Shown here in pieces: positions 2,637 to 60,256 of a stretch of DNA of 64,000 bases; position 1 is the first letter of the stretch, and each line of letters begins with the position of its first letter. Below the pieces are notes generated by a model that saw nothing but the letters and a program-made list of their open reading frames with translations, did no database searches and had not been told where the DNA came from. The stretch covers positions 124,001 to 188,000 of the forward strand of contig CAKKQC010000021.1 of NCBI GenBank assembly GCA_919901855.1, written 5' to 3'. The position numbers and the translations under genes are program-made. This DNA comes from a bacterium. GTDB lineage: Bacteria > Oederibacteriota > CAKKQC01.

Positions 2637-5600
2637 ATGCGAGTACTGCGACGCTCGGTTTCGCCCTCCTGGGCTCTCGCGCTCGTTGCGTTCCTCATCG
2701 GCCAAACCGCAAGTACCTCGGATCCCGCCTGGACGACGAAGGCGCCGCTGCTGGCAGCGCAGGGCTGGCAGATTGGCGCCGCGGTGGGTGGCACGGTCTA
2801 TTCGATCGGCGGAACCGACGGCTTCAACTGGCTCTCGACGGTGGAAGCCTACGACCCGAACACGAACACGTGGGTGATGAAGGCGCCGATGCCGACGGCG
2901 CGGGCTGTCATGGGTGGCGCCGTGGTGGGCAGCATCATCTACGCGATCGGTGGAGCCGGCGGCAGCGCGACGGTGCAAGCGTACGATTCGGACACCGACA
3001 CGTGGGTGACGAAGGCACCGATGCCGACGGCGAGGAGGGATCTGGCTGCCGCCGCGGTGGGCGGCACGATTTACACGTTCGGCGGAGGCAACGGTGGCGG
3101 TCCCCTCTCGACGGTGGAAGCCTATGACCCCAACACGGATACGTGGGTGACGAAAGCGGGCATGCCGACGGCGCGGGTTAATCCGGCTGCCGCCGCAGTG
3201 GGTGGCAAGATATACGTGATCGGCGGACAGAACAGTTTCTACCGCGCAACGGTGGAGGCGTACGATCCGAATACGAACACGTGGGCGACGAAAGCGCCCA
3301 TGCCAACGGCGCGGGGGATGCTGGCTGCCGCCGTAGTGGGCGGGACGATCTACGCGATCGGTGGCTACACCTCCGGAGTGGACTACTTCACGGTGGAGGC
3401 CTACGATCCGAACACGAACACGTGGGTGACCAAGACGCGCATGCCGACCAAGCGAGAGTTTCTGGCTGCCGCCGCAGTGGGCGGGACGATCTACGCGATC
3501 GGCGGGCAGCAATCGAGTCCCTCCATCACGACGGTTGAAGCGGGGATGCCCGGTGCTGATCTCGCCGCAGGGCTGAGTATGCTGGCGAGTGCGGTATGTA
3601 CTGGCCAGGGCTTCCTCCTGACGCTCACGGTCACCAACACGGGTCGGGTGACGGCGCTGGGGCTGGACGCGGCACCGTTCCTCCTCGGCGGCGGCGGGGG
3701 GGTGACGTGGGCTGACGGCCCCTTTCCCTCCCTGCCCCTTGACCTCGCGGGCGGTGCGTCCAAGACTTTCACATGGTCTTACACAGGGTCGGGGCCGGGG
3801 CTGGTGGCGTGGACGACGACGGTGGTGGGAACCGATGTGGACTCGGGTCTGACGGTGACGACGGGAGCGGTGGTGTCGAACGGGATCACGGTCGGTGCTC
3901 CCGGCGGATTGCTGGCGCCCTCCACGGCGGTTCAGCCAAACGTCTCTGTGGGGCAGTGGTGCGCGGTTGCGCTAACGGTTACGAACACGGGCGTGGCGGA
4001 TGTGACCGGGCTGACGGCGACGATCTACGTGAACCCCGGAGGGGCGCTCACCAGTCGCCCCTCGCCTCCGGTTCCCTCGAGCGTGCCCCTATTGACGGTC
4101 GGCGCGTCGCAGACGTTCGTGTTCGGTCTCACGGCCACGGGAGCTGGGCTGGTGACTTTCACGACGAGCGGGATGGGCACGTGCGTGACTACGGCTGGCT
4201 CAACGAGCTCCGTAACAATCCAGACACCGGCCGCGCTGGCGGCCGTCGCGGACATGTTCGCGGGAGTGATCTGCCTGGGTCAGGGCTTCCTTGTGACGGT
4301 AACGGTGACGAATACAGGTCAGGCGGGGGCGGTGAACGTGAACGTGCCGGCCATGCCGTTCGTCATGAGTGGGAGCGGGGGCGCAGCGCTGGCCGCCGGT
4401 CCGACGCCCGCGATGCCTGTGACGCTGACCGGAGGCTCATCGCGCACATTCACGTGGACGTATACCGGATCGTCAGCGGGGAGTGTATGGCTGACCACGA
4501 CGGTGACGGGAACGGATATGAACTCGGGCCAGGTCGTGAAGACGGGCCCAGAACCGACGTCGACGGGGACGATCGCAGCGCCGGGAACGCTTGTGGCGAG
4601 TGGGTCGGCACCCGCATCTGTTTCGGTCGGTCAGTGGTTCCAGGTGAAGCTCACGGTGACGAACACGGGAGGGGTGGCGGTGACCGGTCTAGCAGCGACG
4701 CTTTACGCGGGGCCGGGTGGCGCGCTCGCGAGCGTGCCTGGCGGGCCAGTTCCTGTGGACCTCGCGAGCCTGGCGCCGGGGACGGCGACGACGTTCGTCT
4801 TCAGCTGCACTGCGACGGGGTCTGGGCCGGTCACGCTTTCGATGACCGTGAACGGCACGGCTCTGTGCGGAGGGGTGCCGACACCGGTGGAAGCCGTGGC
4901 CGTGGCCACGGTTACGATCCAGATGCCGGCGGTGCAGGTCATTGATGCCCAGTCACCGGCGTCCCCGGGAGTGGGGGTGCCGGTGACGTATCGGATCGTC
5001 GTCGAGAACGCGGGGACGGTGGTGATCGACAGCCTCGTCGTGGTCGACACGATTTCGCCGGTCGTGACGCCACCGTATTCTGCCGATCAGCCGGCGGGGT
5101 TCGCCCTGACGAGCCCGGTGTCGGTGACGGGCGGCACACGGTTCGAGTGGAGCGGAACTGGGTTGAACATGGTGCCCAGTGCGACCTTCACGTTCACGAT
5201 TACGGGAACGGTCGGATCGGTGGGTGTCTCGACTTGGGTGACCAATAGTTCGCACGTGACCGCCGGGACGGTATGCGGAACGACCGTGATGCAGTCGAGT
5301 GCGGCGGGTTTTGGCGTTACGGCTCCGCCTGCGCCAATGAACATCATTACGGTGGCGGGCACGGGGGTGCAGGGGTATAACGGAGATGGCATTGCGGGGA
5401 CAGCGGCGCAGTTGTCAGCACCTGTGGGGGGGTGTTTCGATGGTGCAGGTAACCTGTTCTTTTCTGACTACGCGAATGACCGCATACGGAAGATCGATCT
5501 GAATGGCGAGATCACGACGGTGGCCGGGAGTGGAGTCAAGGGATACTTCGGTGACGGCGGCCCCGCAGTCTCCGCGCAGATGGATTCTCCTGGCCAGGTC

Positions 5601-8600
5601 GCGCTGGACTCCTTCGGGAATATCTATATTCCAGATCACGTGAATCGCCGCGTGCGGAAGGTGGACTTGGCGGGGAACATAACCACTTTCGCAGGCGATG
5701 GGACTTGGGGGTACGGTGGCGATGGAGGTCCAGCCACATCGGCTCAATTGGGGAGGCCGTCACAGGTCCTGGTGGATCCCACCGGCAACGTCTATATCAG
5801 CGACCAGTACAACCACGTTGTCCGCAGGGTCGACACGGGCGGCATCATCACGACGGTTGTTGGCAACGGGGTCCAGGGGTACTCCGGTGATGGAGGACCG
5901 GCCACATCCGCGGAGCTTTACGCGCCGGTCAGTCTCGCTATGGACAGTTTCGGCAATCTTTACGTGGGAGACATTGATCTGGGATGCGTTCGCAAGGTCG
6001 ACACCTCTGGGATGATCACAACCTACGCAGGTACCGGCGTTTCGGGATTCTTTGGAGATGGCGGACCCGCGACTTCTGCGCAACTGTACGGTCCTTTCAG
6101 TCTCGTGTGCGATGCGTCCGGCAATCTCTACATCGCCGACCGGAACAATCATCGCGTGCGCAGGGTGGATGCGGCCAGGAATATCGCGACTATTGCAGGC
6201 GCGGGTACCGCGGGTTTCTCCGGAGACGGCGGACCGGCGGCGTCTGCGGAAATGAACCAGACGACCGGCGTGATGCTGGATTTGTCGGGGAACCTCTATG
6301 TCGCGGACTGGCTGAATCATCGTATTCGGAAAGTGGGCCAGCAACTGTTCATGCTCAGTGAGCGGGTGGCGCCGGCGGGGCCCGTGTGTGCGGGATCGGC
6401 GCTGACCTGCACGATCTCCTGGAGCAACTACGGGACAGCGACGATCACGGGCCTCACGATCACGGACACGTTGCCTGCCGATACGCTCTACTCCTCCCCG
6501 AGCCGTGTCTATTGGGGCGACAACCCGATCGTCTCGTCCGCATACGCCACGTCCATGGCTGGGCCGTGGACGGCGGGGGAGCCGCCCAATGCCACCGGTC
6601 CGCCACTCGTGATGCGGTGGGTGGTGGGAGACGTGTATCCCGGCCATTCCGGCTTCATCACCTACAGGGCCAACGTCTCGAGTGCCGTCCCCGGATGGAC
6701 CACGATTGCAAACCGGGCCTCGGCAACCATCTACGGGGATCGGTGGACCACCCTCACGCCGGACGCCAAGGTGGAGGCGTATGGAATGAACGTGGCGGTT
6801 GCGAACACCCAGACGCCCGCGAATCCGGCGGTGGGTGGGCGGGTGACCTACCGGATTGTCGTAGCCAACATCGGGGCGGCGACGATCACGGACCTGCTGA
6901 TCGCGGATTCCATCGCTCCGGTGATCATGAGCGCGACAACGGACGAGCCGAGTGGATTCCCAGCGCCGCTGGTGTCGAGCGTGGCCGGGACGGGGAGCCT
7001 GTTCGTGTGGAGCGCGAGCGGGTTGACCTTCGCCCCCGGGCAGATCTTCACGTTCACGATCACCGGAGGGGTTGGTGATGTGTGCGGGAGCACGGCCGTG
7101 TCGAACACCGCGTTCGTGATCGCGATGACGTCGTGCTCGGCGACCGCGCTCGCGTCTCAGGCGGCCGGGATGGTCGTGGCCCCGCTGGTTGTCGGGTTGA
7201 CGATCGTCAAGATGCAGACTCCCGCCTCCCCGGTGGTGGGAGGGCCCGTCCAATACCAGATCCTGGTGACGAATACGGGGTCGGCGACCGTCGAGAGCAT
7301 CGTGGTCGTGGACACGCTCTCGCCGATGATCACGGGAGTGGTAGTGTCCTCGCCCGCGGGGTTCTCGGCACAGCCGGTCGCGCAGTCGTCTTCGGGGACG
7401 ATCTATAGCTGGGCGAATGCGGTTCCCTTCGCGCCGGGGTCGGCCGCCACGTTCCAGCTCGACGGCACTCTCGGGACGGTGTGCTTCCAGGCGACGGTTT
7501 CGAACACGGCGTACCTGGCCACGGTGGCGTCATGCACGGCCACGGTGTTGGGATCGAATGTGACCGGCTTCACGCTGGCCCTGCCGGTGATGTCCGCAAG
7601 CGTCATGAAGACGCAGACGGGAGGGGGCGGGGTTGGGGCGCCGGTAGAGTACATGATCCACGTGACCAACACGGGAGGCGTTGTGATCGATGGGCTCACG
7701 ATCGTGGACACGCTTTCGCCGGTCCTCAGCAACGCCGTGACGGCACAGCCGCCTCCGTTTGCGGCGCCCGTCGTGACGAGCGCGGCCGGATCCGGGACGC
7801 GGTACGTCTGGAGCGCCGCGGGGGTGAACCTGGCGCCGGCGCAGACCCTGACCATCACGGTGACCGGGGAGATGGGATACGTATGCGCGACTACGGCAGT
7901 CTCGGGCGCCGCCTACATGACCGTGCGGGATGCGGGGGCGTGCGGGGAGATGCGCGGATTCTCGAACGCCGTCGGGAACGTGGTCGAGCCGCCCGGGAGC
8001 GCGATCTCGGTGGTAAACACACAGGTGGGCGGTGGACCGTCCGGATCCGGGGTGATCTACACCATCGTCGTGACGAACACGGGCGCCGCGACGATCGACC
8101 GGCTGACGGTCGTGGACACGGTGTCGCCCATCCTGGTGAACGGCATGACCGCCCAGCCGGCCGGATTCGGGCCGCCGACGGTGGCGGGGACGGGAAGCGG
8201 GACCCGGTATGTGTGGTCCAGCGTGGGGCTGGCCTTCCTGCCGGGCGCGCAGCTCTCCTTCACGGTGACGGGCAATGTGGGGGCGGTCTGCGCGTCGACG
8301 AGCGTGTCCAACACCGGGTATGCCGTCGCAGGTAGCGCATGTGCTACGTCGGGATCGTTCGCCCCGGTAGTCGGGTTCACGACGACGGGGGGCGGTTGCG
8401 GTGCGGCGGCACTCTCCGTCGGCATCGCTTTCGTGCCGGGAAATCCGCGAGTCGGGGATGCCTGGCAGGCGTGGGTGACGGTCAGCAACACCGGTACTGC
8501 GTCCGCGAACAGCGTGGCAGCGACGTTGCTGGTCGTGAACGGCGGAGGGAACTTGAAAGAGATGAACGGGCCCGTCCCGTCCGGGCCGGTCACGCTCGCG

Positions 8601-9077
8601 CCGGGAGCCGCGCAGGTATTCGTCTGGAGCGGCAACTCGGCTGCGGCCGGCCGGATCAGCTTTAGCGTTTCCGCCACGGGCATCGACTCCGTGGGCGGCG
8701 CCCCATTGTTCGCCGCTATCGCCGGATCGCTCTCGGTCGCGCCGGGCCAATCGGTCGCCCAGAGGGTGCTGGATCAGGCGGCGCCCGGCACTGAGGCGGC
8801 GGTCTTCCCGAACCCGGTCAAGGGCGGCGACAAAGCCCGGATCGCGCTCAAGCTCAAGTTCGGCTGTGCGACCGAGGTGGTCCTCGATGCATTCACGGCC
8901 GACTTCCGGCCGTACTATCACGCGACGTTCAACAACGTGAGCGCCGGAGACGGGCTCCTCGACCTCTCGGGGCTGCGCCAGTGGCCGCCCGGGGTCTACC
9001 TGCTCAAGATCACGGCCAAGTGCCCGGCGCATCCGGATCAGGTCTTCCCGATCACGAGGCTGGAGGTTTCACGATGA
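2637..9077 (+). CDS. giant exported Kelch / NHL / DUF11-repeat protein with FlgD/Por-like C-terminal domain
   Basis: 2146 residues. An N-terminal signal peptide (about residues 1-27) is followed by six Kelch repeats (about 35-308, each with a VGGTIYAIGG-type strand and a TVEAYDPNTNTW loop). Next come CARDB/DUF11-like Ig modules (about 310-900), then six NHL repeats (about 902-1236, each with a GxGxxGYxGDGGP turn). More DUF11-like modules (about 1240-2030) precede a C-terminal domain (about 2050-2146) beginning with AVFPNP and ending GVYLLKI, the pattern of FlgD-Ig/Por-type C-terminal domains. It is a cell-surface or secreted protein with two likely six-bladed propellers on a flexible Ig-like stalk; its ligand is unknown. 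It opens a four-gene operon and overlaps the PorV-like gene by ATGA. Neighbouring Kelch units are nearly identical at DNA level, implying recent duplication. Confidence 0.85.
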   Translation: MRVLRRSVSPSWALALVAFLIGQTASTSDPAWTTKAPLLAAQGWQIGAAVGGTVYSIGGTDGFNWLSTVEAYDPNTNTWVMKAPMPTARAVMGGAVVGSIIYAIGGAGGSATVQAYDSDTDTWVTKAPMPTARRDLAAAAVGGTIYTFGGGNGGGPLSTVEAYDPNTDTWVTKAGMPTARVNPAAAAVGGKIYVIGGQNSFYRATVEAYDPNTNTWATKAPMPTARGMLAAAVVGGTIYAIGGYTSGVDYFTVEAYDPNTNTWVTKTRMPTKREFLAAAAVGGTIYAIGGQQSSPSITTVEAGMPGADLAAGLSMLASAVCTGQGFLLTLTVTNTGRVTALGLDAAPFLLGGGGGVTWADGPFPSLPLDLAGGASKTFTWSYTGSGPGLVAWTTTVVGTDVDSGLTVTTGAVVSNGITVGAPGGLLAPSTAVQPNVSVGQWCAVALTVTNTGVADVTGLTATIYVNPGGALTSRPSPPVPSSVPLLTVGASQTFVFGLTATGAGLVTFTTSGMGTCVTTAGSTSSVTIQTPAALAAVADMFAGVICLGQGFLVTVTVTNTGQAGAVNVNVPAMPFVMSGSGGAALAAGPTPAMPVTLTGGSSRTFTWTYTGSSAGSVWLTTTVTGTDMNSGQVVKTGPEPTSTGTIAAPGTLVASGSAPASVSVGQWFQVKLTVTNTGGVAVTGLAATLYAGPGGALASVPGGPVPVDLASLAPGTATTFVFSCTATGSGPVTLSMTVNGTALCGGVPTPVEAVAVATVTIQMPAVQVIDAQSPASPGVGVPVTYRIVVENAGTVVIDSLVVVDTISPVVTPPYSADQPAGFALTSPVSVTGGTRFEWSGTGLNMVPSATFTFTITGTVGSVGVSTWVTNSSHVTAGTVCGTTVMQSSAAGFGVTAPPAPMNIITVAGTGVQGYNGDGIAGTAAQLSAPVGGCFDGAGNLFFSDYANDRIRKIDLNGEITTVAGSGVKGYFGDGGPAVSAQMDSPGQVALDSFGNIYIPDHVNRRVRKVDLAGNITTFAGDGTWGYGGDGGPATSAQLGRPSQVLVDPTGNVYISDQYNHVVRRVDTGGIITTVVGNGVQGYSGDGGPATSAELYAPVSLAMDSFGNLYVGDIDLGCVRKVDTSGMITTYAGTGVSGFFGDGGPATSAQLYGPFSLVCDASGNLYIADRNNHRVRRVDAARNIATIAGAGTAGFSGDGGPAASAEMNQTTGVMLDLSGNLYVADWLNHRIRKVGQQLFMLSERVAPAGPVCAGSALTCTISWSNYGTATITGLTITDTLPADTLYSSPSRVYWGDNPIVSSAYATSMAGPWTAGEPPNATGPPLVMRWVVGDVYPGHSGFITYRANVSSAVPGWTTIANRASATIYGDRWTTLTPDAKVEAYGMNVAVANTQTPANPAVGGRVTYRIVVANIGAATITDLLIADSIAPVIMSATTDEPSGFPAPLVSSVAGTGSLFVWSASGLTFAPGQIFTFTITGGVGDVCGSTAVSNTAFVIAMTSCSATALASQAAGMVVAPLVVGLTIVKMQTPASPVVGGPVQYQILVTNTGSATVESIVVVDTLSPMITGVVVSSPAGFSAQPVAQSSSGTIYSWANAVPFAPGSAATFQLDGTLGTVCFQATVSNTAYLATVASCTATVLGSNVTGFTLALPVMSASVMKTQTGGGGVGAPVEYMIHVTNTGGVVIDGLTIVDTLSPVLSNAVTAQPPPFAAPVVTSAAGSGTRYVWSAAGVNLAPAQTLTITVTGEMGYVCATTAVSGAAYMTVRDAGACGEMRGFSNAVGNVVEPPGSAISVVNTQVGGGPSGSGVIYTIVVTNTGAATIDRLTVVDTVSPILVNGMTAQPAGFGPPTVAGTGSGTRYVWSSVGLAFLPGAQLSFTVTGNVGAVCASTSVSNTGYAVAGSACATSGSFAPVVGFTTTGGGCGAAALSVGIAFVPGNPRVGDAWQAWVTVSNTGTASANSVAATLLVVNGGGNLKEMNGPVPSGPVTLAPGAAQVFVWSGNSAAAGRISFSVSATGIDSVGGAPLFAAIAGSLSVAPGQSVAQRVLDQAAPGTEAAVFPNPVKGGDKARIALKLKFGCATEVVLDAFTADFRPYYHATFNNVSAGDGLLDLSGLRQWPPGVYLLKITAKCPAHPDQVFPITRLEVSR

Positions 9078-10009
9078 CCGCGCGCTGGGCCGTGATCGCC
9101 GTCTCCGCCATGCTCGCGGCCGGACGGGTCGGGGCGGTGACGGCGGGGTCGGAAGAAGTCGTGGGGGCTGACAACGTGGCCGGGACGTTCCTCCTGCGTG
9201 GAGTCGGTGGGCGGGCGGCCGGGATGGGCGAAGCCTTCGGGGCGGTCGCCGACGACGCGTCGGCGGGCTCGTGGAATCCCGCGGGCCTCTCCCGCGTGGA
9301 CCGCGCGGGGGGCGTCCTGATGTACGATGCGGCGGGCGAAGGGCTCGGCCTCCGCTACGCGGCCGTGGGGGGGCCGGTCGGGGTCGGGAGCGCGTCCCTC
9401 AGCCTGACGGCCATGACGTACGGCGGCTTCGATGCCTTTGACGAGCAGGGCGTGCGGACCGGTTGGCGGAGTCCTGTCGACATTGGCGCGCTCGCGGGAT
9501 GGGGCTGGCGGCATCCCGCGTGGTTCGGGGACATGGGGGGGGTCGGGATTGCGGGGGAGTTCGTCTCCACGACGACCGCCAACCGGTTCCTCGGTCTGAG
9601 CGCGGGTGTCATCTACCAGCTGGCGCCCGGGACGGCCGTCGGGATGGCTGTCCAGCACGTGAGCACGCACAGCGACGGGTACGCCCTGCCTGGGCTCTTC
9701 CGGTTCAGTTGGACGTCCTCGCCGATGGCTCACCTCCGAGTCGCTGCGGACGGCGTCCAGGGCCTGGTGGATCGCGAGAGATGGATCTCGGGCGGCGCCG
9801 AGGCATTCCTGAGCCGGAAACTGGCACTGCGCGCGGGGTACAAGTGGTCGCCGGCCAATTCGGGGGTCAAGGGCCTGACCGGCGTCACGGCGGGCGTAGG
9901 GGTGCGGCTGCGCAACGTGGAGGTGGACTACGCGTACCAGCCGGTTGGGTACCTGACCACGAGTCACCGGCTGTCGCTTGGTTACCGCGCGCGGGGGGGG
10001 TCGGAATGA
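9074..10009 (+). CDS. PorV/PorQ-like outer-membrane beta-barrel protein
   Basis: 311 residues with a signal peptide (about 1-20). The segment RAAGMGEAFGAVADDASAG followed by WNPAGL is the hallmark N-terminus of PorV/PorQ/UPF0164-type barrels. The rest alternates beta strands rich in Gly and aromatic residues, consistent with an outer-membrane barrel. In Bacteroidota PorV shuttles cargo carrying a C-terminal Por domain to the surface. The ATGA overlap with the preceding gene, whose product ends in an FlgD/Por-like domain, suggests this is its dedicated partner (inference). ATG at 9074 was chosen over upstream in-frame starts because of the overlap and the signal peptide. Confidence 0.75.
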   Translation: MTARWAVIAVSAMLAAGRVGAVTAGSEEVVGADNVAGTFLLRGVGGRAAGMGEAFGAVADDASAGSWNPAGLSRVDRAGGVLMYDAAGEGLGLRYAAVGGPVGVGSASLSLTAMTYGGFDAFDEQGVRTGWRSPVDIGALAGWGWRHPAWFGDMGGVGIAGEFVSTTTANRFLGLSAGVIYQLAPGTAVGMAVQHVSTHSDGYALPGLFRFSWTSSPMAHLRVAADGVQGLVDRERWISGGAEAFLSRKLALRAGYKWSPANSGVKGLTGVTAGVGVRLRNVEVDYAYQPVGYLTTSHRLSLGYRARGGSE

Positions 10010-10920
10010 AGCGGCACCGGCTCGCGCTGGTCGGACTCGCCGCCGTTCTCGTCGGGGGGGCGGCGGCCGACGGTTGGGGGGCGGCGCGGGCGCCGGCCAC
10101 GATCATCCGCGCGACTGGTCTCGTGCGTCTGAGGTCGGCGGAGACTGCCGCGTGGACGCAGGTGGTCGCGCCCTTCCCGCTTCACTACGGAGACGAGCTG
10201 AAGACCATCAGCGGCAGGGCGACGGTCGAGTTCGCTGACGGCAGCCGCATTTATGTCAGCCGGCTGACGACCTTCAAGCTCGAGGTGCCGGACACCAGCC
10301 GGCAGAAGGGCGTCAGCCACCGGGTGATCCGCCTTGTGGCCGGGTTGATACGTTCAGTCGTCAAACCCCTGAAGTCTGGTGAATCCTACTACATGGTTTC
10401 GGCGGGGGCGATTGCGGCAATCAAGGGGACCGACTTTGCGTTCGACGGGACCAGCGTGATTGTGTTCGACGAGAACGATCCGGGGGTCGACCACGTGGTG
10501 GTGCTCTCGGACGCCCAGGGCGCGCACGGTGTCGAGGTGAGAGAGGGTCAAATGGCGACCGTCCACCCGGATGGGTCGGTGGGCAGGCCCGTCGAGGTTC
10601 CGCCGGACCGTGCCCGTGAACTCAAGGACGCGACCAGTGGGCCGGAGGCCCCCGCCGACACCGAAGGGTCCGCCAAAAGCCGCGAGGTGCTGTCCTTCAA
10701 GCCCGTGGTGCGCGAGGTCGTGGGTGCGCTAGCTGTCCCGAAGGGGGAACGCGGTCCGGTCGTCACCCTCACGCCGCGCGAGGCCGAGCGGGACCAATGG
10801 GGTGGAGCCGGGATGCAGGGCTACACGGGGCTGATGGATCGGGCGGCGGTGTCTGCCCGGGAAGCACCGTTGCCGCCCGCCCCGCCGCCGCCGGTCAACG
10901 GGTGCGAGGTGGCGCCATGA
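10006..10920 (+). CDS. exported FecR-domain protein
   Basis: 304 residues with an N-terminal signal peptide (MKRHRLALVGLAAVLVGG...). Residues about 55-190 form a FecR domain: GDELKTISGRATVEFADGS, then the SAGAIAAIKGTDFAF strand. The C-terminal third is Pro/Ala-rich and probably disordered. Periplasmic FecR domains scaffold envelope complexes or sense their state. No FecI sigma factor or TonB receptor lies nearby, so a structural role in the envelope module is more likely than iron signalling (inference). The start overlaps the previous stop as ATGA, and the stop overlaps the next start the same way. A second FecR protein lies at 55807. Confidence 0.75.
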   Translation: MKRHRLALVGLAAVLVGGAAADGWGAARAPATIIRATGLVRLRSAETAAWTQVVAPFPLHYGDELKTISGRATVEFADGSRIYVSRLTTFKLEVPDTSRQKGVSHRVIRLVAGLIRSVVKPLKSGESYYMVSAGAIAAIKGTDFAFDGTSVIVFDENDPGVDHVVVLSDAQGAHGVEVREGQMATVHPDGSVGRPVEVPPDRARELKDATSGPEAPADTEGSAKSREVLSFKPVVREVVGALAVPKGERGPVVTLTPREAERDQWGGAGMQGYTGLMDRAAVSAREAPLPPAPPPPVNGCEVAP

Positions 10921-12254
10921 CCTGTAAGCGGCGCCTCTTCGCCTTCATGATCCTCGCGACGGCTGGGGGATCAGCCGTCGCGGGGGCGAGCCCGATCCCG
11001 CTCGTGCCATTCCTGGACTTCTCCCAGGGGGTGAACAGCAACCCCGGCACGATCCCCGATGAGACGCCCACGGCCGCCCGTCCGCGGGCGGACACGTTCA
11101 CGCTCATTCAGCCCGGGGCGGGCCTTGGCCTCGTCAATGGTCCCGTGTTCAAGGCGGGACTCCGGTACCAGGCCGAGTGGGAGCGGTACGACCAGGTGCG
11201 CGAAGGCGACACGGTGTCGCACCATGCGATGGCACGAATGCGGTGGGGATCAGGAGCCACCAGCGCGAATGTGACGCTCGGATACTCGCACTTCGCGTTC
11301 CCGCGCATCCTGGGGGCCGACGATCAGCCGGTGCTCGACCATGATGCCGCGCGGATTGGGCTCGAGCTGATGACACCTCTTGCATCGGGCGATGGCCTGG
11401 GGGCCTTTCTCGAGGCGTCGGCTGAGGCGCGTTCGTATCCCCACTATCTGGTCGTCACGAACGGCGAGGCCCCCGGGGACCTGTCCAGGAGGTCTGACCG
11501 CACCGGTTGGGGAGCGATCGGGGTGTCCTTTTCGAAGGGCGACGCGGCGGGCATGCGAGTCGCGGCAGAAGCCGGCGACACCGTCGGCAACGGGCTGGCC
11601 AGCCAATCCGGCGAATGGGGTGATTTCTTCTCGTATCACGCCTTGGGCGCGCGGGTGTCTGGTTGGCGAACGTTTTCCCGCTGGCCGGTGCGACTGGAAG
11701 GCGTGGTGAGGTACCAGCGGCGGAGCTCCGTGGGCCGGATCGCAACGGATGAGGGCGACCTTGAACGCTCCGATCTCGCAAGCCTCGCCGGTTCGGCTAC
11801 GTGGTCTCTCGGCCGCGGCATTGGCCTGACCGCGGACCTGGGCGTGCTGCTGAACAAGTCAAATGATCCGCAGACGTCGTTCCGCGAAACCCGGTTTGCG
11901 GTGGGCCTCAGGCTGATGGATCTCCTGTTCGGCGAGGAGGCGGTCGTGGCGCCGCAGCAGGCGTCGACACCGTCCCTCGAAGAGTCGGAGGTCAACCGCC
12001 TCTACGACGAAGCGCGTGGCACGTACGACCGCGGTTCCTTCGCGCGATGCGTCTCGCTGACCGAGGACCTTCTGCGGTTGGTGCCGAACTTCTGGCAGGG
12101 CTGGTCGCTGCTCGGCAGCTCCCTCTACGCCGACGGCGACACGATCGAGGCGTACGATGCCTACCAGCGGTCGCTGGAACTGAATCCGGAGAACCCGGAA
12201 CTCAGGGAGTGGCTCTCCCGCGTGCGCTCTGCGACTCCTGCCGTAGCCCCCTGA
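10917..12254 (+). CDS. outer-membrane beta-barrel protein with C-terminal TPR
   Basis: 445 residues: signal peptide (about 1-23), a central region of alternating amphipathic strands (about 30-350) typical of an outer-membrane barrel, then two TPR-like helical hairpins (about 370-445, including WQGWSLLGSSLYADGDT and LNPENPELREWLSRV). A TPR attached to a barrel would face the periplasm and could dock the FecR protein (inference). It is the last gene of the four-gene module. No enzyme motif is visible, and I do not recognise a named family. Confidence 0.6.
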   Translation: MTCKRRLFAFMILATAGGSAVAGASPIPLVPFLDFSQGVNSNPGTIPDETPTAARPRADTFTLIQPGAGLGLVNGPVFKAGLRYQAEWERYDQVREGDTVSHHAMARMRWGSGATSANVTLGYSHFAFPRILGADDQPVLDHDAARIGLELMTPLASGDGLGAFLEASAEARSYPHYLVVTNGEAPGDLSRRSDRTGWGAIGVSFSKGDAAGMRVAAEAGDTVGNGLASQSGEWGDFFSYHALGARVSGWRTFSRWPVRLEGVVRYQRRSSVGRIATDEGDLERSDLASLAGSATWSLGRGIGLTADLGVLLNKSNDPQTSFRETRFAVGLRLMDLLFGEEAVVAPQQASTPSLEESEVNRLYDEARGTYDRGSFARCVSLTEDLLRLVPNFWQGWSLLGSSLYADGDTIEAYDAYQRSLELNPENPELREWLSRVRSATPAVAP

Positions 12255-12437: not shown

Positions 12438-12635
12438 GTGAAGATCACGACTCACGTGGACGAGAAGCTCCTCAAGGATGCCATGAAGGCGACGCGGGCC
12501 CGGACGCAACGCGATGTGATCGAGCGGGGCCTGCGGAATGTCCTCCAGGAGAGCAAGCACCGCGAATTAGCGAAGCGGCTCGGTAAGTTCCGGATCGCGT
12601 GGACACACGATGAGCTGATGCGCTCGCGCGCATGA
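12438..12635 (+). CDS. vapB: VapB-like antitoxin
   Basis: 65 residues starting at GTG with GGAGG 9 bases upstream. The N-terminus (MKITTHVDEKLLKDAMKAT) followed by a helix-turn-helix-like pair is a ribbon-helix-helix DNA-binding fold of the VapB type. The basic C-terminus would wrap the toxin. The stop overlaps the toxin start as ATGA, and a palindromic operator lies upstream. Confidence 0.8.
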   Translation: MKITTHVDEKLLKDAMKATRARTQRDVIERGLRNVLQESKHRELAKRLGKFRIAWTHDELMRSRA

Positions 12636-13039
12636 CCGCGGTCCGCCTTCTCGACACGTCTGTCTGGATTCGAGCGCTCGGCGCGCATGCCGTCCCGCGG
12701 GTGAGGGACCTGGTTCAGGGCATCGTCGAGCGGCATGAGGCGGCCACCTGCACACCCGTCGCGTTCGAGCTCCTGCGAGGGGTGCCGGATCCCGGAGAGT
12801 TCGACGAGCTGCTGGATTACCTCATGAACCTGAACAGCCTTCCCGTGGACTGGGTGGGGGCGGCCCGGTGGGCTGCGAGTCCGGCGATCCGGTCGCTCAA
12901 GGTAAAGTCCATGGATCTCGTGATCGCGCATACGGCGCTGGCAAACGGGGCCGTCCTCGTGCACGCGGACTCGGACTTCGACCGGTTGGCGCGTTCCGTA
13001 CAGCTCAAGGTGGAGAGTCTTGCGGGAGTGTCCAGGTGA
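12632..13039 (+). CDS. vapC: VapC-type PIN-domain ribonuclease toxin
   Basis: 135 residues, the normal VapC length. Begins MTAVRLLDTSVWIRAL with the first catalytic Asp in LLDTSVW. Further acidic residues lie in AFELLRG, KSMDLVIAHTA and HADSDFDRL, giving the full PIN metal-binding set. VapC toxins cleave structured RNA such as tRNA when freed from VapB. ATGA overlap with vapB gives translational coupling. Confidence 0.88.
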   Translation: MTAVRLLDTSVWIRALGAHAVPRVRDLVQGIVERHEAATCTPVAFELLRGVPDPGEFDELLDYLMNLNSLPVDWVGAARWAASPAIRSLKVKSMDLVIAHTALANGAVLVHADSDFDRLARSVQLKVESLAGVSR

Positions 13040-54167: not shown

Positions 54168-54617
54168 ATGAAATATGCAGCGTATCTGGCATCAGCCATG
54201 ATGCTTACGGCCACGATGGCCGGTTGCGGCCCCAAGTCGGTCGCGCTCAACAACGGCGAACTGCGCTCGACCATCGACGCGCCCACGCAGAGCGGGGACT
54301 TCATCGAGGCGATGGGGATCGGCGCGGCCGACCCGGCGCTTCCGACGGCTACCCAGCGCAAGGCCACGTCCCGGAACGCGGCAATCGTGGATGCCCAGTA
54401 CCAGCTTGTCGCGAAACTCAAGGGCGTCACGATCGAGGGCGGCATCACGATCGAGAAGGCCATGGAAACGAGCTCGAAGATCACGGCGTCCGTCAACAAC
54501 ATGGTCAAGGGCGCCGAGGTGACCAAGATCGAGTGGACGAACGACGACGGGTGCGTCGTCACGGTCCGCATCAACAAGAAGGCCGTGGAGCAGGAGCTGG
54601 GGGTTCGCCTGAAGTGA
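54168..54617 (+). CDS. LPP20-like outer-membrane lipoprotein
   Basis: 149 residues. The lipobox LTATMAGC (Cys20) ends the signal peptide. DFIEAMGIGAADPALPTATQRKATSRNAA and a following amphipathic region resemble the LPP20/FlgT-N family of small envelope lipoproteins. AAGGAGGAACAG precedes the ATG. It opens the module and its stop (TGA) overlaps the next ATG by one base. Confidence 0.7.
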   Translation: MKYAAYLASAMMLTATMAGCGPKSVALNNGELRSTIDAPTQSGDFIEAMGIGAADPALPTATQRKATSRNAAIVDAQYQLVAKLKGVTIEGGITIEKAMETSSKITASVNNMVKGAEVTKIEWTNDDGCVVTVRINKKAVEQELGVRLK

Positions 54618-55810
54618 TGAAGCTCCGCGTGGCGGCGCTTGCCGCCGCGACCGTATCCGTGTTCCTCCTGGCGGGCTGCGGAGGGGCGCCTGCGCGCCCC
54701 TCCCAGACCGCGGAGGCACCGGGGGAAGATGTCGTTACCGTCGAGGCGGAAGGCTCGGCGAACGTCATTCCCGGCAACAAGCTGAACACCCACGACCAGG
54801 CCCTCGCGATGGCCCAGCGCAACGCGGTCGAGAAGGCCGTGGGGGTGCTGGTCACCGGCCAGATGGTCGTGTCCCAGGCCAGGCTCATCGAGGACCAGGT
54901 TTTCGCCAAGTCCGCGGGGTACCTCAAGGCGTGGGACATCGTGTCGGAGGCGGAGACGGACGGGCTTTATACCGTCAAGATCCGCGCGAAGGTCAAGTTC
55001 GGGGACGTTCGGAAGGACCTGGACGGGCTGGGGTTGCTGATCAGGACGAAGAAGGTCGGGAACCCGCGGGTCATGGTCCTGATTGACGAGACTGTGGATG
55101 GAAACAAGTCGGAGAGCCGGACGGTGGAGACGGGGCTCGTGAAGGCCCTCCTGGACGCAGGCTACAAGGTAGTGGACCTCGAGCAACTCGCCGAGATCCG
55201 GTCGCAGGAGCAGGCGGTCCGGGCGATCGGCGGGGACGCGGCGGCGGCGGCGGACCTGGGAAAGCGGTTTGGCGCCGAAATCGCGCTGGTGGGGACCGTG
55301 AAGACCGCCAAGCTGACCGGCGCGGACGAGGCGGCGATGGCCGGGATGCTGACCTACCGCGGCCGGCTGAACCTCAAGGCGGTCAAGACGTCGTCGGGGC
55401 AGGTGGTGCTGGCGGATTCCCGCGAAGGGTCCGGCATGGACCTCCTGGCCGAGAGCGCCTCGATCCGGTGCCTGGCGAATCTGGCCGAGGCGTCGGGGAC
55501 GGAGATGGCGCAGAAGCTGGCGCCCGCGCTCTGGGAAGGCGCCGAGGTCCAGCTCGCGCTTTCCGGGATCAGGGATTTCGCCATGTTGCAGACGATCGTG
55601 GCCGCCCTGAAGGCGGCTGACGGGGTCCGGAACGTGACGGTCCGGAGTTTTGCGGCCGGGGCGGCGGTGTATGACATCGACCTGGCCGGGGGCAACGCGC
55701 AGACGCTGGCGGCCCAGCTCGAGGGCAGGCGGAAGCCGCCGATGGACATCAAAGAGGTGGCCGCGTACCGCATCGAAGCGGTGCTGACGGCGGAAGGGAC
55801 GCAACCGTGA
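54617..55810 (+). CDS. exported lipoprotein with FlgT/CsgG-like domains
   Basis: 397 residues, lipobox FLLAGC (Cys near 22). Residues about 50-140 (ALAMAQRNAVEKAVGVLV) resemble FlgT-N/LPP20. Residues about 145-270, with GNPRVMVLIDETVDGNKSE, ALLDAGYKVVDLEQLAEI and FGAEIALVGTVKTAKL, resemble the FlgT/CsgG-type periplasmic fold. The C-terminal 100 residues repeat the pattern seen at the end of the 55807 protein. Its role is unknown; it is predicted periplasmic and outer-membrane anchored. It is coupled to both neighbours by overlaps. Confidence 0.65.
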   Translation: MKLRVAALAAATVSVFLLAGCGGAPARPSQTAEAPGEDVVTVEAEGSANVIPGNKLNTHDQALAMAQRNAVEKAVGVLVTGQMVVSQARLIEDQVFAKSAGYLKAWDIVSEAETDGLYTVKIRAKVKFGDVRKDLDGLGLLIRTKKVGNPRVMVLIDETVDGNKSESRTVETGLVKALLDAGYKVVDLEQLAEIRSQEQAVRAIGGDAAAAADLGKRFGAEIALVGTVKTAKLTGADEAAMAGMLTYRGRLNLKAVKTSSGQVVLADSREGSGMDLLAESASIRCLANLAEASGTEMAQKLAPALWEGAEVQLALSGIRDFAMLQTIVAALKAADGVRNVTVRSFAAGAAVYDIDLAGGNAQTLAAQLEGRRKPPMDIKEVAAYRIEAVLTAEGTQP

Positions 55811-57354
55811 GCAAGGCAATGATCGTGGGCGGATGGACGAGGATGGCGGCCGTGGTGGCCCGGCGGGTCGGCCTGGGGGGCCTCGTGCTGTGCGCGATGA
55901 TGGCGGCCGGAATGGCCGGGAGCGCGGACAGCTACAAGGCCACGGTGACCTTCCTGAAAGGGATGGCCCGGCACCAGGGCAAGGGCGGCGCGATCGCGAA
56001 CGTGACGCTGGGGCAGGCCCTGCTCGAAGGCGAGACGATCCTGACCCTCCAGAACACGAAGTGCGAGCTCAAGCTCGAGAACGGGACGGTCATCCGGCTC
56101 GGACCCTCGACCAAGTTCACGCTGGCGACGCTGCAACGTACGCCCATGGGCGGGGTCAAGGGCGTCTTCAAGGTCGTGTCCGGCCGCCTCTGGTTCACGG
56201 TCGCGAAGCTCACGGGCGATTCCGAGATGACCACGCAGACGCCCAGCGTCGTCGCGGCCGTGAAGGGGACCGTCTACCGCGTGGATGCGGCCGCGGACGG
56301 CAAGACCGACCTGGCCGTCTACGACGGCGTGGTCGCGGCGAGCCAGCCGGGGCAGGCGCCCGTCGACGTGCACCCGATGGAGCAGCTCGCGGCGATGCCG
56401 AACTCGGCGTTCGAGCGCGGCACGGTCGACGAATCCCAGGACGACAAGGACGACTGGATCAAGTGGAACAAGAACCGCGACAAGCTCCGGGTCATGATCA
56501 TCATCCCCGAGAAGCACGGGGAAGAGCGCGTGAGCTCGTCCGTGTCCGAGAACGCGGCGATGAAGCGGTTCCTGAACAACTACCTGTTCAAGCTCGTGGA
56601 GAAGGACCAGGCCGACAAGATCCGGGACGGCGAGAAGCTGAAGGCGGCCCTCAAGGGCGATACCGCCGCCGCTGCGGCGGCCGGGCTCGAGGTCGCGGCG
56701 GACCTGATCATCGTGGGCGAGGCGCGGGCGAGCTACTTCAAGAGCCCCGTCCTCGGCGGGCTCATCTCCGCCACGGCGAACCTGACCGGGCGCGCGGTGC
56801 GCGCCGACACGGCGGAAGTGATCGCGGCCCTGCCGGGGCTCTCGACCCGGGCCGTGGACATCACGGACGAGTCGGCGGCGTCGAAGGCGCTCATGGCCGC
56901 GGGCGAGAAGATGGCGAGCGAGTTCATCGACTCGATCATCGCGGGCTGGAAGCGCGACGCCCGGAAGGGCACGGGCCTCAACGTGATCGTCGACGGCGTC
57001 GACTACAAGAAGCTCAAGATCCTGACGAACGTGCTCGCCGGGATCGAGGGCGTCCGGGACGTGCAGTCCCTGTACCTCGTCGGCCGCCGGTCGCTCCTGA
57101 GCATCACGTTCGCGGGCGATTCGACGGGGCTCGCGGACCGCATCGAGGCCGCGAACTTCGCGCCGCTCAAGGTCGGCGTCGTCGGGCTCTCGGCCTACAA
57201 GCTCGAGCTCGAGGTGACCGGCGGAGGGGCCATGGCGCCCGCGCCGGCGCCGGCGGCTGCCTCCCCAAAAGCCGAAGCCGGCGCTGAGGAGTCGGCCCCG
57301 GAGGGAGCCGCTCCCCAGGCGCCGGTGACTCCGGCCGCGACCCCGGCGCAGTAA
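55807..57354 (+). CDS. exported FecR-domain protein fused to FlgT-like domains
   Basis: 515 residues from a GTG overlapping the previous stop as GTGA. A signal segment (about 15-42) precedes a FecR domain (about 60-200: LGQALLEGETILTLQNTKC, RLGPSTKFTLATL, SVVAAVKGTVYRVDAA). Residues about 230-470 resemble the FlgT/CsgG-like region of the preceding gene, and the last 40 residues are Ala/Pro-rich. It combines the FecR scaffold of the 10006 gene with the partner domain of 54617. Role unknown; likely periplasmic. Confidence 0.65.
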   Translation: MSKAMIVGGWTRMAAVVARRVGLGGLVLCAMMAAGMAGSADSYKATVTFLKGMARHQGKGGAIANVTLGQALLEGETILTLQNTKCELKLENGTVIRLGPSTKFTLATLQRTPMGGVKGVFKVVSGRLWFTVAKLTGDSEMTTQTPSVVAAVKGTVYRVDAAADGKTDLAVYDGVVAASQPGQAPVDVHPMEQLAAMPNSAFERGTVDESQDDKDDWIKWNKNRDKLRVMIIIPEKHGEERVSSSVSENAAMKRFLNNYLFKLVEKDQADKIRDGEKLKAALKGDTAAAAAAGLEVAADLIIVGEARASYFKSPVLGGLISATANLTGRAVRADTAEVIAALPGLSTRAVDITDESAASKALMAAGEKMASEFIDSIIAGWKRDARKGTGLNVIVDGVDYKKLKILTNVLAGIEGVRDVQSLYLVGRRSLLSITFAGDSTGLADRIEAANFAPLKVGVVGLSAYKLELEVTGGGAMAPAPAPAAASPKAEAGAEESAPEGAAPQAPVTPAATPAQ

Positions 57355-57363
57355 GATTTCGCG

Positions 57364-57369
57364 TATGAT
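57364..57369 (+). promoter_or_regulatory. -10 box of the exported propeller gene
   Basis: TATGAT, 7 bases before the ATG at 57377. It supports that start over the ATG at 57365 and suggests an internal promoter within the second envelope module. Confidence 0.5.
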
Positions 57370-57376
57370 GTATCGC

Positions 57377-58831
57377 ATGCGAACGATCGTCCTCCTGTGT
57401 TCCTTGATCGCTGCTTCGTGGGCCGCGGCCATGCCGCAGCCTTCCGGGTCGGCGGGGGCGTATGCGTACCCGACCCCACCCAGCTTCGGGAAATGCGTCG
57501 CGAGCTACACTGACGGGAGTTTCTTCGTGGCGGGATCGGTCGGGGGATGCGGCGGCAGCGACTTCTTCGTTCAGCGCCACGATGTGCCGCTGACCCAGAC
57601 GCGGTGGTCCAACGTGTATGACGCCACCTGCATGGACAACGTGCCCCGGGGAGCCGCGACCTTCGGCGACATCGCCTACGTGGCCGGCGGGGTGACGGGG
57701 GGGCAGTATCTCGCCCGGATCGGCGCGGACGGGTCGCGGGTCTGGACGGTCGTTCCCAACATGACATACGTATGCGACGTGGCGGTGGCTTCCGATGACG
57801 GCTCGATCTGGGTGGTGGGGTACGACAGCGGTCCGCCGATGTCGGCCGTGGTCATCCAGTACCGGGACAACGGGTCGGGGGTGACCCAGCTCGGGCGCAA
57901 CGCCTACCGCTTCCAGGATTCCTACGATACGCAGGCCTTCGCGGTGGCCGTTGCCGCGGATGCCGCGTACATCGGCGGGGCGGTATTGGCCGCCTCGATC
58001 CCGAGTCCCTGGGTCATGGCCGTCAACCGGACCGGCGGTGTAGTTCGTTTCTCCCAGCGGACCACGGATACCGTGAGCCGGTCCTGGATCGCCCGGCTGG
58101 TGGCGGGACAGGGGCGGGTGTTCGGATTGCACCTGCGCGACAACGGCAGCGGCCTGCCCCTCTCCGGCCGGGTGGCCGCGATCGACACCTCGAACGGCAC
58201 GTACTCCGAGAGCGCGGACGTGTTCAACGGGATGGGGATGACGACCTTCAGCGACTTTCCCTGCGGGATCGCGATGCATCCGACTCTCCCGATCCTGATT
58301 ACGGGAGGCGTCGGCACGATCCGCGTCCATAACTTCGGACTCGAGGGGCTCTGGAGCGTCGGGGACGTCAGCGCGGGCGGGACTGGCCCCGTTGTCGGCG
58401 GGGTCGCGATCAGCAACCGGCTGGACTACACCGTCGCGGTCGCCTACACCACCGGGTTCGCGGCGACCGAGATCGCCCATCTGGACGGGTACGCGTTCAC
58501 GCAGGACCTGACCCAGGTGGCCGGCACGAGCAACCTCGTCGCCGCCCCCAACCTCATGGACCTGGCGGAGGCCGGCTCGTTCATCCGGTTCATCGTGAAG
58601 CCGCTCAAGGCGACGAAAGAGACCAAGATCGAGGTCTTCGACCGCGCGGGTAACCTGTTCTGGTCCAAGGTCGTGGCCCTCGAGGGGGCGGGCAACACGG
58701 AATACGTGTGGGACGGTTTCTCAGTGGCCAAGCGCCGGATCGGGCCGGGCGGTTACGTCGCCATCCTGACGGGAAGCGGGTCGAACAGCTCCGACCGCGC
58801 GCCGTTCGTCGTGACGGGGAAGTCCAAGTGA
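57377..58831 (+). CDS. exported beta-propeller-like protein with FlgD-like C-terminal domain
   Basis: 484 residues with a signal peptide (MRTIVLLCSLIAASWAAA). Residues about 30-390 repeat short beta strands with AVASDDGSIWVVGYDS-type units, like delta-60/propeller proteins. The C-terminal 95 residues (PNLMDLAEAGSFIRF, KIEVFDRAGNLFWSK, GPGGYVAILTG) are an FlgD-Ig-like domain, comparable to the tail of the 2637 protein. Its stop overlaps the PorV-CsgG-like gene as GTGA, repeating the cargo-barrel pairing of the first module. Confidence 0.65.
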   Translation: MRTIVLLCSLIAASWAAAMPQPSGSAGAYAYPTPPSFGKCVASYTDGSFFVAGSVGGCGGSDFFVQRHDVPLTQTRWSNVYDATCMDNVPRGAATFGDIAYVAGGVTGGQYLARIGADGSRVWTVVPNMTYVCDVAVASDDGSIWVVGYDSGPPMSAVVIQYRDNGSGVTQLGRNAYRFQDSYDTQAFAVAVAADAAYIGGAVLAASIPSPWVMAVNRTGGVVRFSQRTTDTVSRSWIARLVAGQGRVFGLHLRDNGSGLPLSGRVAAIDTSNGTYSESADVFNGMGMTTFSDFPCGIAMHPTLPILITGGVGTIRVHNFGLEGLWSVGDVSAGGTGPVVGGVAISNRLDYTVAVAYTTGFAATEIAHLDGYAFTQDLTQVAGTSNLVAAPNLMDLAEAGSFIRFIVKPLKATKETKIEVFDRAGNLFWSKVVALEGAGNTEYVWDGFSVAKRRIGPGGYVAILTGSGSNSSDRAPFVVTGKSK

Positions 58832-60249
58832 CGGCGCGCCGCCGTCTCCTCCCGGCCGCGGCGGCCGCCCTGGGGCTCGCCGCCTCGACCGCGGGCGCCT
58901 TGGGGCTGCCGCTGGTCGACCAGCCGGGGGCGATCGAGCTCAGCATGCCGGTCAGCGTCCGCCAGTATGGGATGAGCGGGGTGTCGGGGCTCGGCGGCGA
59001 CGTGCTCCGGGCCTGGAGCAACCCCGCCCTGCTCGGGCTCATGAGCTCCCGGGGAGAAGGCGCCCTCGTCGGGGGGAAGATCCTGGGGGACACGAACCTG
59101 TTCGCCGTCGGGGGGGCGTGGCAGCTCACCCCCGACTGGACGGTCGGGCTCATGATGGCGCGCTACGGTCTCAGCCTCGACGGCGTGAACGAGTTTGGCG
59201 ATCCCTCGGGCGAGCCTCTGGACCAGTCCAGCGCTGGCACCGGACTGCTGGCCGCGTACCGGTGGCGGTGGCTGCGCGCGGGGATCGCGGTCCGGCTCGT
59301 CGACGTGAGCATCCTCAAGTACCACGCGTCCGGCATGGCGGCCGACCTTGGGCTCCAGGCTTCCTGGGCGGGCGCGGTGGCCGGCGTGGCCATCCGCAAC
59401 GCCGGCGCGGCTCTCGGGGCGGCGGACACCGCGGCCGGGATCGCGGGCGTGATGATGCCGACCGAGATCCGCGCCGGGCTGGGCTACCGCCACGAGCCGG
59501 CGAGGCTCGCGGGCGGGCTCGAGTTCTCGAAGGTGACCGACCGGGACGCCCGGATCGGGCTGGGTGTCGAGTACTGGGCCGCGACGTTTCTGGCCCTCCG
59601 CGCCGGCTGGGGACCCGGGGATTCCGGCGAGATCACGATGGGGTTGTCGGCGCTCTGGCAGCGCCTGGGCCTCGACTACGGTCTCGCTGTCCACGCGGCG
59701 GGCATGAACCACCGGCTGGCGCTGTCCTGCCGCTTCGGCGAGGCCCTCGTGGCGCCGGCGCCTGGCGCGGCCGAGGAAACCCCGGCGGCCCGGGCGGAAG
59801 AGCCCGTCGCGGCGGCCGCGCCCGTTCCCGCGCCCGCCAAGGGCGCCAAGCAGCTCAACCTCGCGGTCGCGGACCTGCGCGCCGAGAACGTGTCCGCGGG
59901 GAACTCGGCCGTCATCGCCGACCTGCTGCGCGGCGAGCTCGTGAAGACGCACGCGTTCAACGTGATCGAGAAGGCCAACATGGACAAGGTCCTCGCCGAG
60001 CAGGCGTTCCAGCAGACCGGGTGCAGCTCCGAGGAGTGCGCGGTCAAGCTCGGCAAGCTGCTCAACGTCCAGCGCATGGTGGTCGGGAGCTTCGGCCAGC
60101 TTCTCGATTCCTACTTCCTCAACGTCCGCGTCGTGGACGTCGAGACCGGGCGGGTGGTCTTCGGGGATTCCGCCGAGGGGAAGACCGTCGCTGACCTCAA
60201 GGTCGGAGTGCGCGACCTTGCCAAGCGGATGGCCGTCCAGATACGATAG
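58828..60249 (+). CDS. PorV-like outer-membrane barrel fused to a CsgG/LpoB-like domain
   Basis: 473 residues from a GTG overlapping the previous stop. A signal peptide (about 1-25) is followed by a barrel region (about 30-315) with QYGMSGVSGLGGDVLRAWSNPALLGL, the PorV-type NPA turn. An Ala/Pro-rich linker (about 315-345) leads to a C-terminal domain (about 347-473) with KQLNLAVADLRAENVSAG, VIEKANMDKVLAEQAFQQTG and RMVVGSFGQLLDSYFLNVRV, resembling CsgG/LpoB-type periplasmic domains. The fused domain probably faces the periplasm and could recruit the FlgT-like lipoproteins (inference). A family for the complete architecture is not known to me. Confidence 0.7.
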   Translation: MTARRRLLPAAAAALGLAASTAGALGLPLVDQPGAIELSMPVSVRQYGMSGVSGLGGDVLRAWSNPALLGLMSSRGEGALVGGKILGDTNLFAVGGAWQLTPDWTVGLMMARYGLSLDGVNEFGDPSGEPLDQSSAGTGLLAAYRWRWLRAGIAVRLVDVSILKYHASGMAADLGLQASWAGAVAGVAIRNAGAALGAADTAAGIAGVMMPTEIRAGLGYRHEPARLAGGLEFSKVTDRDARIGLGVEYWAATFLALRAGWGPGDSGEITMGLSALWQRLGLDYGLAVHAAGMNHRLALSCRFGEALVAPAPGAAEETPAARAEEPVAAAAPVPAPAKGAKQLNLAVADLRAENVSAGNSAVIADLLRGELVKTHAFNVIEKANMDKVLAEQAFQQTGCSSEECAVKLGKLLNVQRMVVGSFGQLLDSYFLNVRVVDVETGRVVFGDSAEGKTVADLKVGVRDLAKRMAVQIR

Positions 60250-60256
60250 AGGCCTG

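What the first reader, a model, noticed from the sequence alone, without database searches (positions are those of the whole stretch)
2637..12254. Candidate secretion or surface-assembly module 1: cargo, PorV-like barrel, FecR protein, barrel-TPR
Four genes each overlap the next by ATGA: a 2146-residue exported protein with an FlgD/Por-like C-terminal domain, a PorV-like barrel, a FecR-domain protein and a barrel with periplasmic TPR. In type IX secretion PorV receives cargo with a C-terminal Por domain, but no other Por/Sov genes are visible here. Strict coupling of a cargo to its own PorV-like barrel suggests a simplified, cargo-dedicated route to the surface.
Basis: inference. Interest (0 to 1): 0.78.

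Follow-up and report, generated by a model that had tools for sequence, protein, structure and literature searches.

The report
Cargo genes paired with private PorV-like shuttles
In this uncultured bacterium about fifty large exported proteins are each encoded directly in front of their own outer-membrane barrel of the PorV type, and the genome also holds a single type IX secretion channel gene, so it seems to export each surface protein with a private shuttle where the well-studied bacteria share one.

Summary
The gene layout is as described: four genes coupled by exact ATGA overlaps. The cargo's tail and the barrel are related to the type IX secretion (T9SS) sorting domain and to PorV. The cargo-barrel coupling is real and general. 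At least 53 of about 63 PorV-family genes in this genome directly follow a gene ending in such a domain, about half by a 4-base overlap. Tail and barrel distances mirror each other (Mantel r 0.68, 0 of 10,000 permutations; also within each tail type). The pairing recurs in 20 of 26 testable related genomes and at 54 of 73 PorV loci from many phyla (control ORFs 31 of 481). FecR and barrel-TPR are not part of the conserved core. Best reading: an SprA-dependent T9SS in which each cargo has its own PorV-family shuttle, probably also its surface anchor. In described T9SSs all type A tails share one PorV; only type B tails have private (SprF) shuttles. No PorU or GldM was found, but that negative is uncalibrated. 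Transport, specificity and anchoring are inferred, not shown.

The parts
2637..9077 (+). Cargo: 2146-aa exported surface protein (Kelch propeller, DUF11/CARDB repeats, NHL propeller, C-terminal sorting-like domain)
8790..9074 (+). C-terminal domain of the cargo (type 1 here; related to T9SS type A / Por_Secre_tail); predicted seven-stranded sandwich
9074..10009 (+). PorV/PorQ-family outer-membrane beta-barrel, presumed dedicated shuttle of the cargo; ATGA overlap
10006..10920 (+). FecR-domain exported protein, translationally coupled accessory; not part of the conserved core
10917..12254 (+). Outer-membrane barrel-like protein with C-terminal TPR; the TPR resembles those fused to other PorV partners
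57365..58831 (+). Second cargo in the window, 488 aa, type 3 C-terminal domain
58828..60249 (+). Second PorV-family barrel in the window, fused to a CsgG/LpoB-like C-terminal domain; 4-base overlap with its cargo gene

Best explanation
The core pair (2637-10009) is a type IX secretion substrate plus its own PorV-family shuttle. The cargo crosses the inner membrane by Sec (signal peptide). Its C-terminal sandwich domain enters the single SprA/Sov translocon encoded elsewhere in the genome, is gripped by the extracellular loops of its cognate PorV-like barrel docked at SprA's lateral opening, and leaves sideways as a cargo-barrel complex. Because cargo and barrel are made together by translational coupling and no PorU sortase was found, the barrel most likely stays bound as the cargo's surface anchor and is not recycled. 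TPR or CsgG/LpoB-like periplasmic domains, fused to the barrel or encoded next to it as in the fourth gene here, may tie the complex to the wall. Shown: gene order, homology, genome-wide and cross-phylum pairing, distance congruence, presence of SprA. Inferred: transport through SprA, pairing specificity, anchoring, the roles of FecR and TPR.
For: SprA in own genome and in 40/45 genomes of the phylum. 58 PorV-family genes plus 5 diverged ones; 48 scored pairs, 25 with -4 overlap against 18% background, and 5 more. 14/16 type-1 tails directly precede a PorV. Tail and barrel distances correlate, r 0.678, 0/10,000 permutations, and within each tail type, r 0.75, 0.65, 0.57. Pairing conserved in 20/26 testable phylum genomes and at 54/73 PorV loci from many phyla against 31/481 control ORFs. 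Tail profile hits T9SS domains by sequence and fold: PorU Z 10.3, mirolase 9.8, NucA bound in the translocon 9.4, PorZ 9.2. Barrel's top PDB match is PorV in the SprA complex. Published mechanism: the CTD binds PorV loops inside the SprA pore (PMC10994853); private shuttles exist for type B CTDs (PMC12618676); PorZ stays bound to PorQ (PMC10202324).
Against: No experiment. Distance congruence could come from duplicating the two genes as a unit without molecular specificity. 39 of 70 type-2 (FlgD-like) tails have no NF033709-detectable PorV directly behind them (5 of these have a diverged one), so private pairing is not universal. One 99% complete relative (G040) has 29 PorV matches but no SprA match. 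GldM was not found, so the energy source is open. The window proteins each score just below curated cut-offs. Ig-like folds are common, so the tail's fold match is not specific on its own.
Confidence: 0.68

Rival explanations
1. Ordinary T9SS with interchangeable PorV paralogues: the barrels are redundant shuttles or surface-complex subunits, and pairs exist only because the two genes are duplicated and kept at equal dose as a unit; any PorV can serve any tail.
For: Congruence also follows from co-duplication (cannot separate this); many type-2 tails have no partner of their own and must share one, e.g. the SprA-operon PorV; F. johnsoniae type B shuttles cross-talk between similar CTDs (PMC12618676).
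Against: Pairs keep their association across phyla; three tail types track three barrel groups; redundancy does not explain more than 50 retained copies.
Confidence: 0.2
2. A simplified route: the PorV-like barrel alone passes or displays its cargo without SprA.
For: No Por/Sov gene in the window; five of 45 relatives show no SprA match although they have many PorVs, one of them 99% complete.
Against: SprA present in own genome and 24 of 25 high-quality genomes of the phylum; the modelled barrel resembles PorV and FadL, roughly 14 strands, too narrow for a folded 2146-aa protein (inference).
Confidence: 0.06
3. Not a secretion pair: the barrel is a FadL-like transporter and the cargo a periplasmic or surface protein whose FlgD-like tail only docks on it, exported by another route.
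For: PorV belongs to the FadL superfamily; FadL structures are among the top fold matches; type-2 tails match FlgD_ig.
Against: PorV ranks above FadL by fold and is the only clear sequence hit; tails match Por_Secre_tail and CHU_C models; SprA co-occurs.
Confidence: 0.06

Closest known systems
Type B CTD substrates with cognate PorP/SprF shuttles (SprB-SprF, Fjoh_3952-Fjoh_3951; PG1035-PorP-PorE)
   Same: Shuttle barrel gene directly downstream of the substrate, one private shuttle per substrate, barrel proposed as anchor, TPR/peptidoglycan-binding partner nearby (PMC12618676, PMC9143113)
   Different: Here the barrels are PorV/PorQ family (no PorP/SprF match) and the type 1 tails are type A/Por_Secre_tail-like; about 50 pairs against 9 adjacent pairs in F. 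johnsoniae
PorV shuttle of type A CTD substrates (P. gingivalis, F. johnsoniae)
   Same: Barrel family, tail fold, SprA translocon
   Different: In Bacteroidota all type A tails use one PorV (PMC12618676); here over 60 PorV-family genes, most with their own cargo; PorU and GldM not found (uncalibrated)
PorZ-PorQ and PorU-PorV (T9SS attachment complex)
   Same: A CTD protein that keeps its tail and stays bound to a PorV/PorQ-family barrel (PMC10202324)
   Different: Those are machine components, one each; here the arrangement is used for dozens of diverse surface proteins

Membership tests
Type IX secretion system | SprA/Sov translocon encoded | tested here: met
   TIGR04189 E 2.9e-78, 263.5 bits, cut-off 200; PDB SprA E 8e-19
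Type IX secretion system | Substrates with a Sec signal and a C-terminal Ig-like CTD | tested here: met
   TIGR04183 matched by 11/12 type-1 tails at E<=1, PF18962 by 7/12; 7-strand model, T9SS CTDs among top matches. The window tail alone is below cut-off (14.9 vs 23 bits)
Type IX secretion system | PorV/PorQ-family barrel | tested here: met
   Genome: NF033709 over cut-off in many genes. Window barrel 85.2 bits vs cut-off 90, but top fold and sequence match PorV
Type IX secretion system | PorU sortase (Peptidase C25) | tested here: inconclusive
   No PF01364 match in own genome, but no control genome rang
Type IX secretion system | GldL/GldM (PorL/PorM) rotary motor | tested here: inconclusive
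   No TIGR03517 match in own or 14 other genomes, no valid positive control; GldL, K and N not searched
PorV equivalog (NF033710) | Score over the equivalog cut-off (250 bits) | tested here: not met
   33.7 bits: PorV family, not the single orthologous PorV
Type B CTD / PorP-SprF pair | PorP/SprF-family barrel | tested here: not met
   No PorP/SprF model among NCBIfam hits of the window barrel at E<=0.1
Cognate shuttle (functional claim) | Shuttle physically and specifically required for its cargo | not testable with these tools
   Only linkage and distance congruence

The most novel reading that the evidence does not exclude
Outside Bacteroidota, the usual form of type IX secretion is one private PorV-family barrel per cargo around one shared SprA, with no sortase: the barrel is at once shuttle, specificity factor and permanent surface anchor. 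The single shared PorV plus PorU of Bacteroidota would then be the derived special case.
Probability: 0.4. Interest if true: 0.78.

Novelty: new variant of a known kind. Interest (0 to 1): 0.62.

Why it matters
T9SS is described almost only from Bacteroidota, with one PorV for all type A cargo. A genome with more than 50 cargo-PorV pairs, and the same gene order across many uncultured phyla, gives a large natural set of matched and mismatched pairs for working out how a barrel recognises a sorting domain. It raises whether the barrel itself is the anchor in sortase-less systems. It also offers a practical rule: a gene directly in front of a PorV-family gene is probably surface cargo, which would identify much of the surface proteome of phyla such as Elusimicrobiota.

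Tried and rejected
PF14349 (SprA_N) rang nowhere and was dropped for TIGR04189. Foldseek alone on the tail gave generic Ig folds; the VIA-align second look brought up T9SS CTDs. GldM and PorU searches lack a working positive control, so absence is not claimed. The idea that SprA is always linked to a PorV was rejected: in 20 relatives only 1 has a detectable PorV within 7 kb downstream, although a large tailed protein follows SprA in most of those inspected. A first run of the relatives' pairing test ignored strand and was redone. Literature searches found no report of cargo-paired PorV families outside Bacteroidota, within an open-access library only. FecR and barrel-TPR as core parts: rejected.

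Full report
OBSERVATION. The four genes lie where stated: cargo 2637-9077, PorV-like 9074-10009, FecR-like 10006-10920, barrel-TPR 10917-12254. Each junction reads ATGA. A VapBC pair (12438-13039) follows and is unrelated. The cargo contains Kelch, DUF11/CARDB and NHL repeats and ends in a ~95-residue domain (8790-9074).

TAIL AND BARREL. Twelve tails of the same type from this genome were aligned (A1). Eleven of the twelve match TIGR04183 (T9SS type A sorting domain) at E<=1, best 5.4e-6, and seven match PF18962. The profile finds PorU and HBP35 weakly among PDB sequences. The window tail is predicted as a seven-stranded sandwich, pLDDT 93. Foldseek gave only generic Ig folds, but in the VIA-align second look PorU (Z 10.3), mirolase CTD (9.8), NucA CTD bound in the translocon (9.4) and PorZ (9.2) are among the top 13. 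The window barrel scores 85.2 bits to NF033709 (cut-off 90). Its model (pLDDT 78, roughly 14 long strands) has PorV of the SprA complex as top fold match (6h3i_F, TM 0.70, E 1.7e-11), ahead of FadL, and PorV is the only clear sequence match.

GENOME-WIDE. The genome (4.68 Mb, 93% complete) has 58 PorV-family genes. Gene calling round all of them shows 48 with a gene ending in a Por/FlgD-like domain directly upstream; 25 overlap by exactly 4 bases and 44 lie within 30 bases. Background for exact 4-base overlap is 65 of 357. Five more tail genes are followed by diverged barrels that the family model missed. Conversely, 14 of 16 type-1 tails are directly followed by a PorV. Of 70 further type-2-profile hits, 31 are; the rest must share a shuttle or use another route.

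CO-INHERITANCE. Tails fall into three main styles: type 1 like Por_Secre_tail; type 2 like FlgD_ig (14/14), with CHU_C in 10/14; type 3 a KRK-ended variant related to type 2. Tail and barrel distance matrices correlate, r 0.678, none of 10,000 permutations reaching it. The correlation holds within each style (0.75, 0.65, 0.57) and against permutations stratified by style. This shows the pair is inherited as a unit; it does not by itself show molecular specificity.

TRANSLOCON. SprA/Sov is present once (C23, 1951 aa, TIGR04189 263.5 bits, cut-off 200; PDB SprA E 8e-19), followed by a 705-aa tailed protein and a PorV in one operon. No Peptidase_C25 (PorU) or GldM match was found, but controls did not validate these searches.

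CONSERVATION. Taking the best type-1-like tail in each of 29 other genomes of the phylum, 20 of 26 testable are followed by a PorV within 500 bp. In named genomes found with the barrel profile (Elusimicrobia, Krumholzibacteria, Marinimicrobia, FCPU426, Ignavibacteria, Calditrichota and others), 54 of 73 PorV loci with a readable upstream ORF have a tailed gene upstream, against 31 of 481 control ORFs in the same loci. Most Zixibacteria loci are exceptions.

ACCESSORY GENES. Searched against genes of the PorV regions, FecR matches only itself and the fourth-gene barrel has no full-length counterpart, but its TPR part resembles TPRs fused to other PorV partners. Several partner barrels carry C-terminal TPR or CsgG/LpoB-like domains. 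This recalls PG1035-PorP-PorE, where a TPR/peptidoglycan-binding protein joins a type B shuttle (PMC9143113).

ORGANISM. The phylum is not named by the tools. One same-phylum contig (G016:C44, 75,203 bases) has the length of JAUVAV010000012.1, labelled candidate division FCPU426. Other labels of near relatives conflict (Coatesbacteria, Proteobacteria, Methylomirabilis), so the placement is an inference.

MECHANISM AND NOVELTY. In F. johnsoniae the CTD binds PorV loops inside the SprA pore and leaves sideways with PorV (PMC10994853). All type A tails share one PorV, while type B tails use private SprF shuttles encoded next door (PMC12618676). PorZ stays bound to PorQ (PMC10202324). The simplest reading here is the type B strategy carried out with PorV-family barrels. 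No paper found in the held library describes this. I therefore call it a new variant of a known kind. Specificity, SprA dependence and anchoring remain to be tested.

Noticed in passing
window 54617-61672: A second cargo-PorV pair (57365-60249), preceded by a CsgG/FlgT-like protein and a FecR-domain protein (55819-57354) and followed by an AhpC/TSA plus roadblock-like protein. A FecR-domain gene adjoins both pairs of the window.
   Followed up: partly
L052:9283-10695, L058:7954-9330, L056:3818-5368, L043:18148-19371, L048:8780-9979, window 58828-60246: PorV-family partner barrels fused at the C-terminus to CsgG/LpoB-like or TPR domains, probably periplasmic.
   Followed up: partly
L230:10123-13290, L237:3226-6150, L240:4434-7697, L223:9979-14397, L222:4578-9089: A large protein with a FlgD/PorZ-like tail (FN3 repeats in several) sits directly downstream of SprA in many genomes of the phylum: a candidate conserved T9SS component.
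   Followed up: partly
G000:C40 near 188445 and 121955: Type-2 tails at the end of very long open frames (10,753 and 6,372 aa), not followed by a PorV.
   Followed up: no
window 12438-13039: VapBC toxin-antitoxin pair directly after the module.
   Followed up: no
G040 (same phylum, 99% complete): 29 PorV-family matches but no SprA match; either an assembly gap or a lineage without SprA.
   Followed up: no
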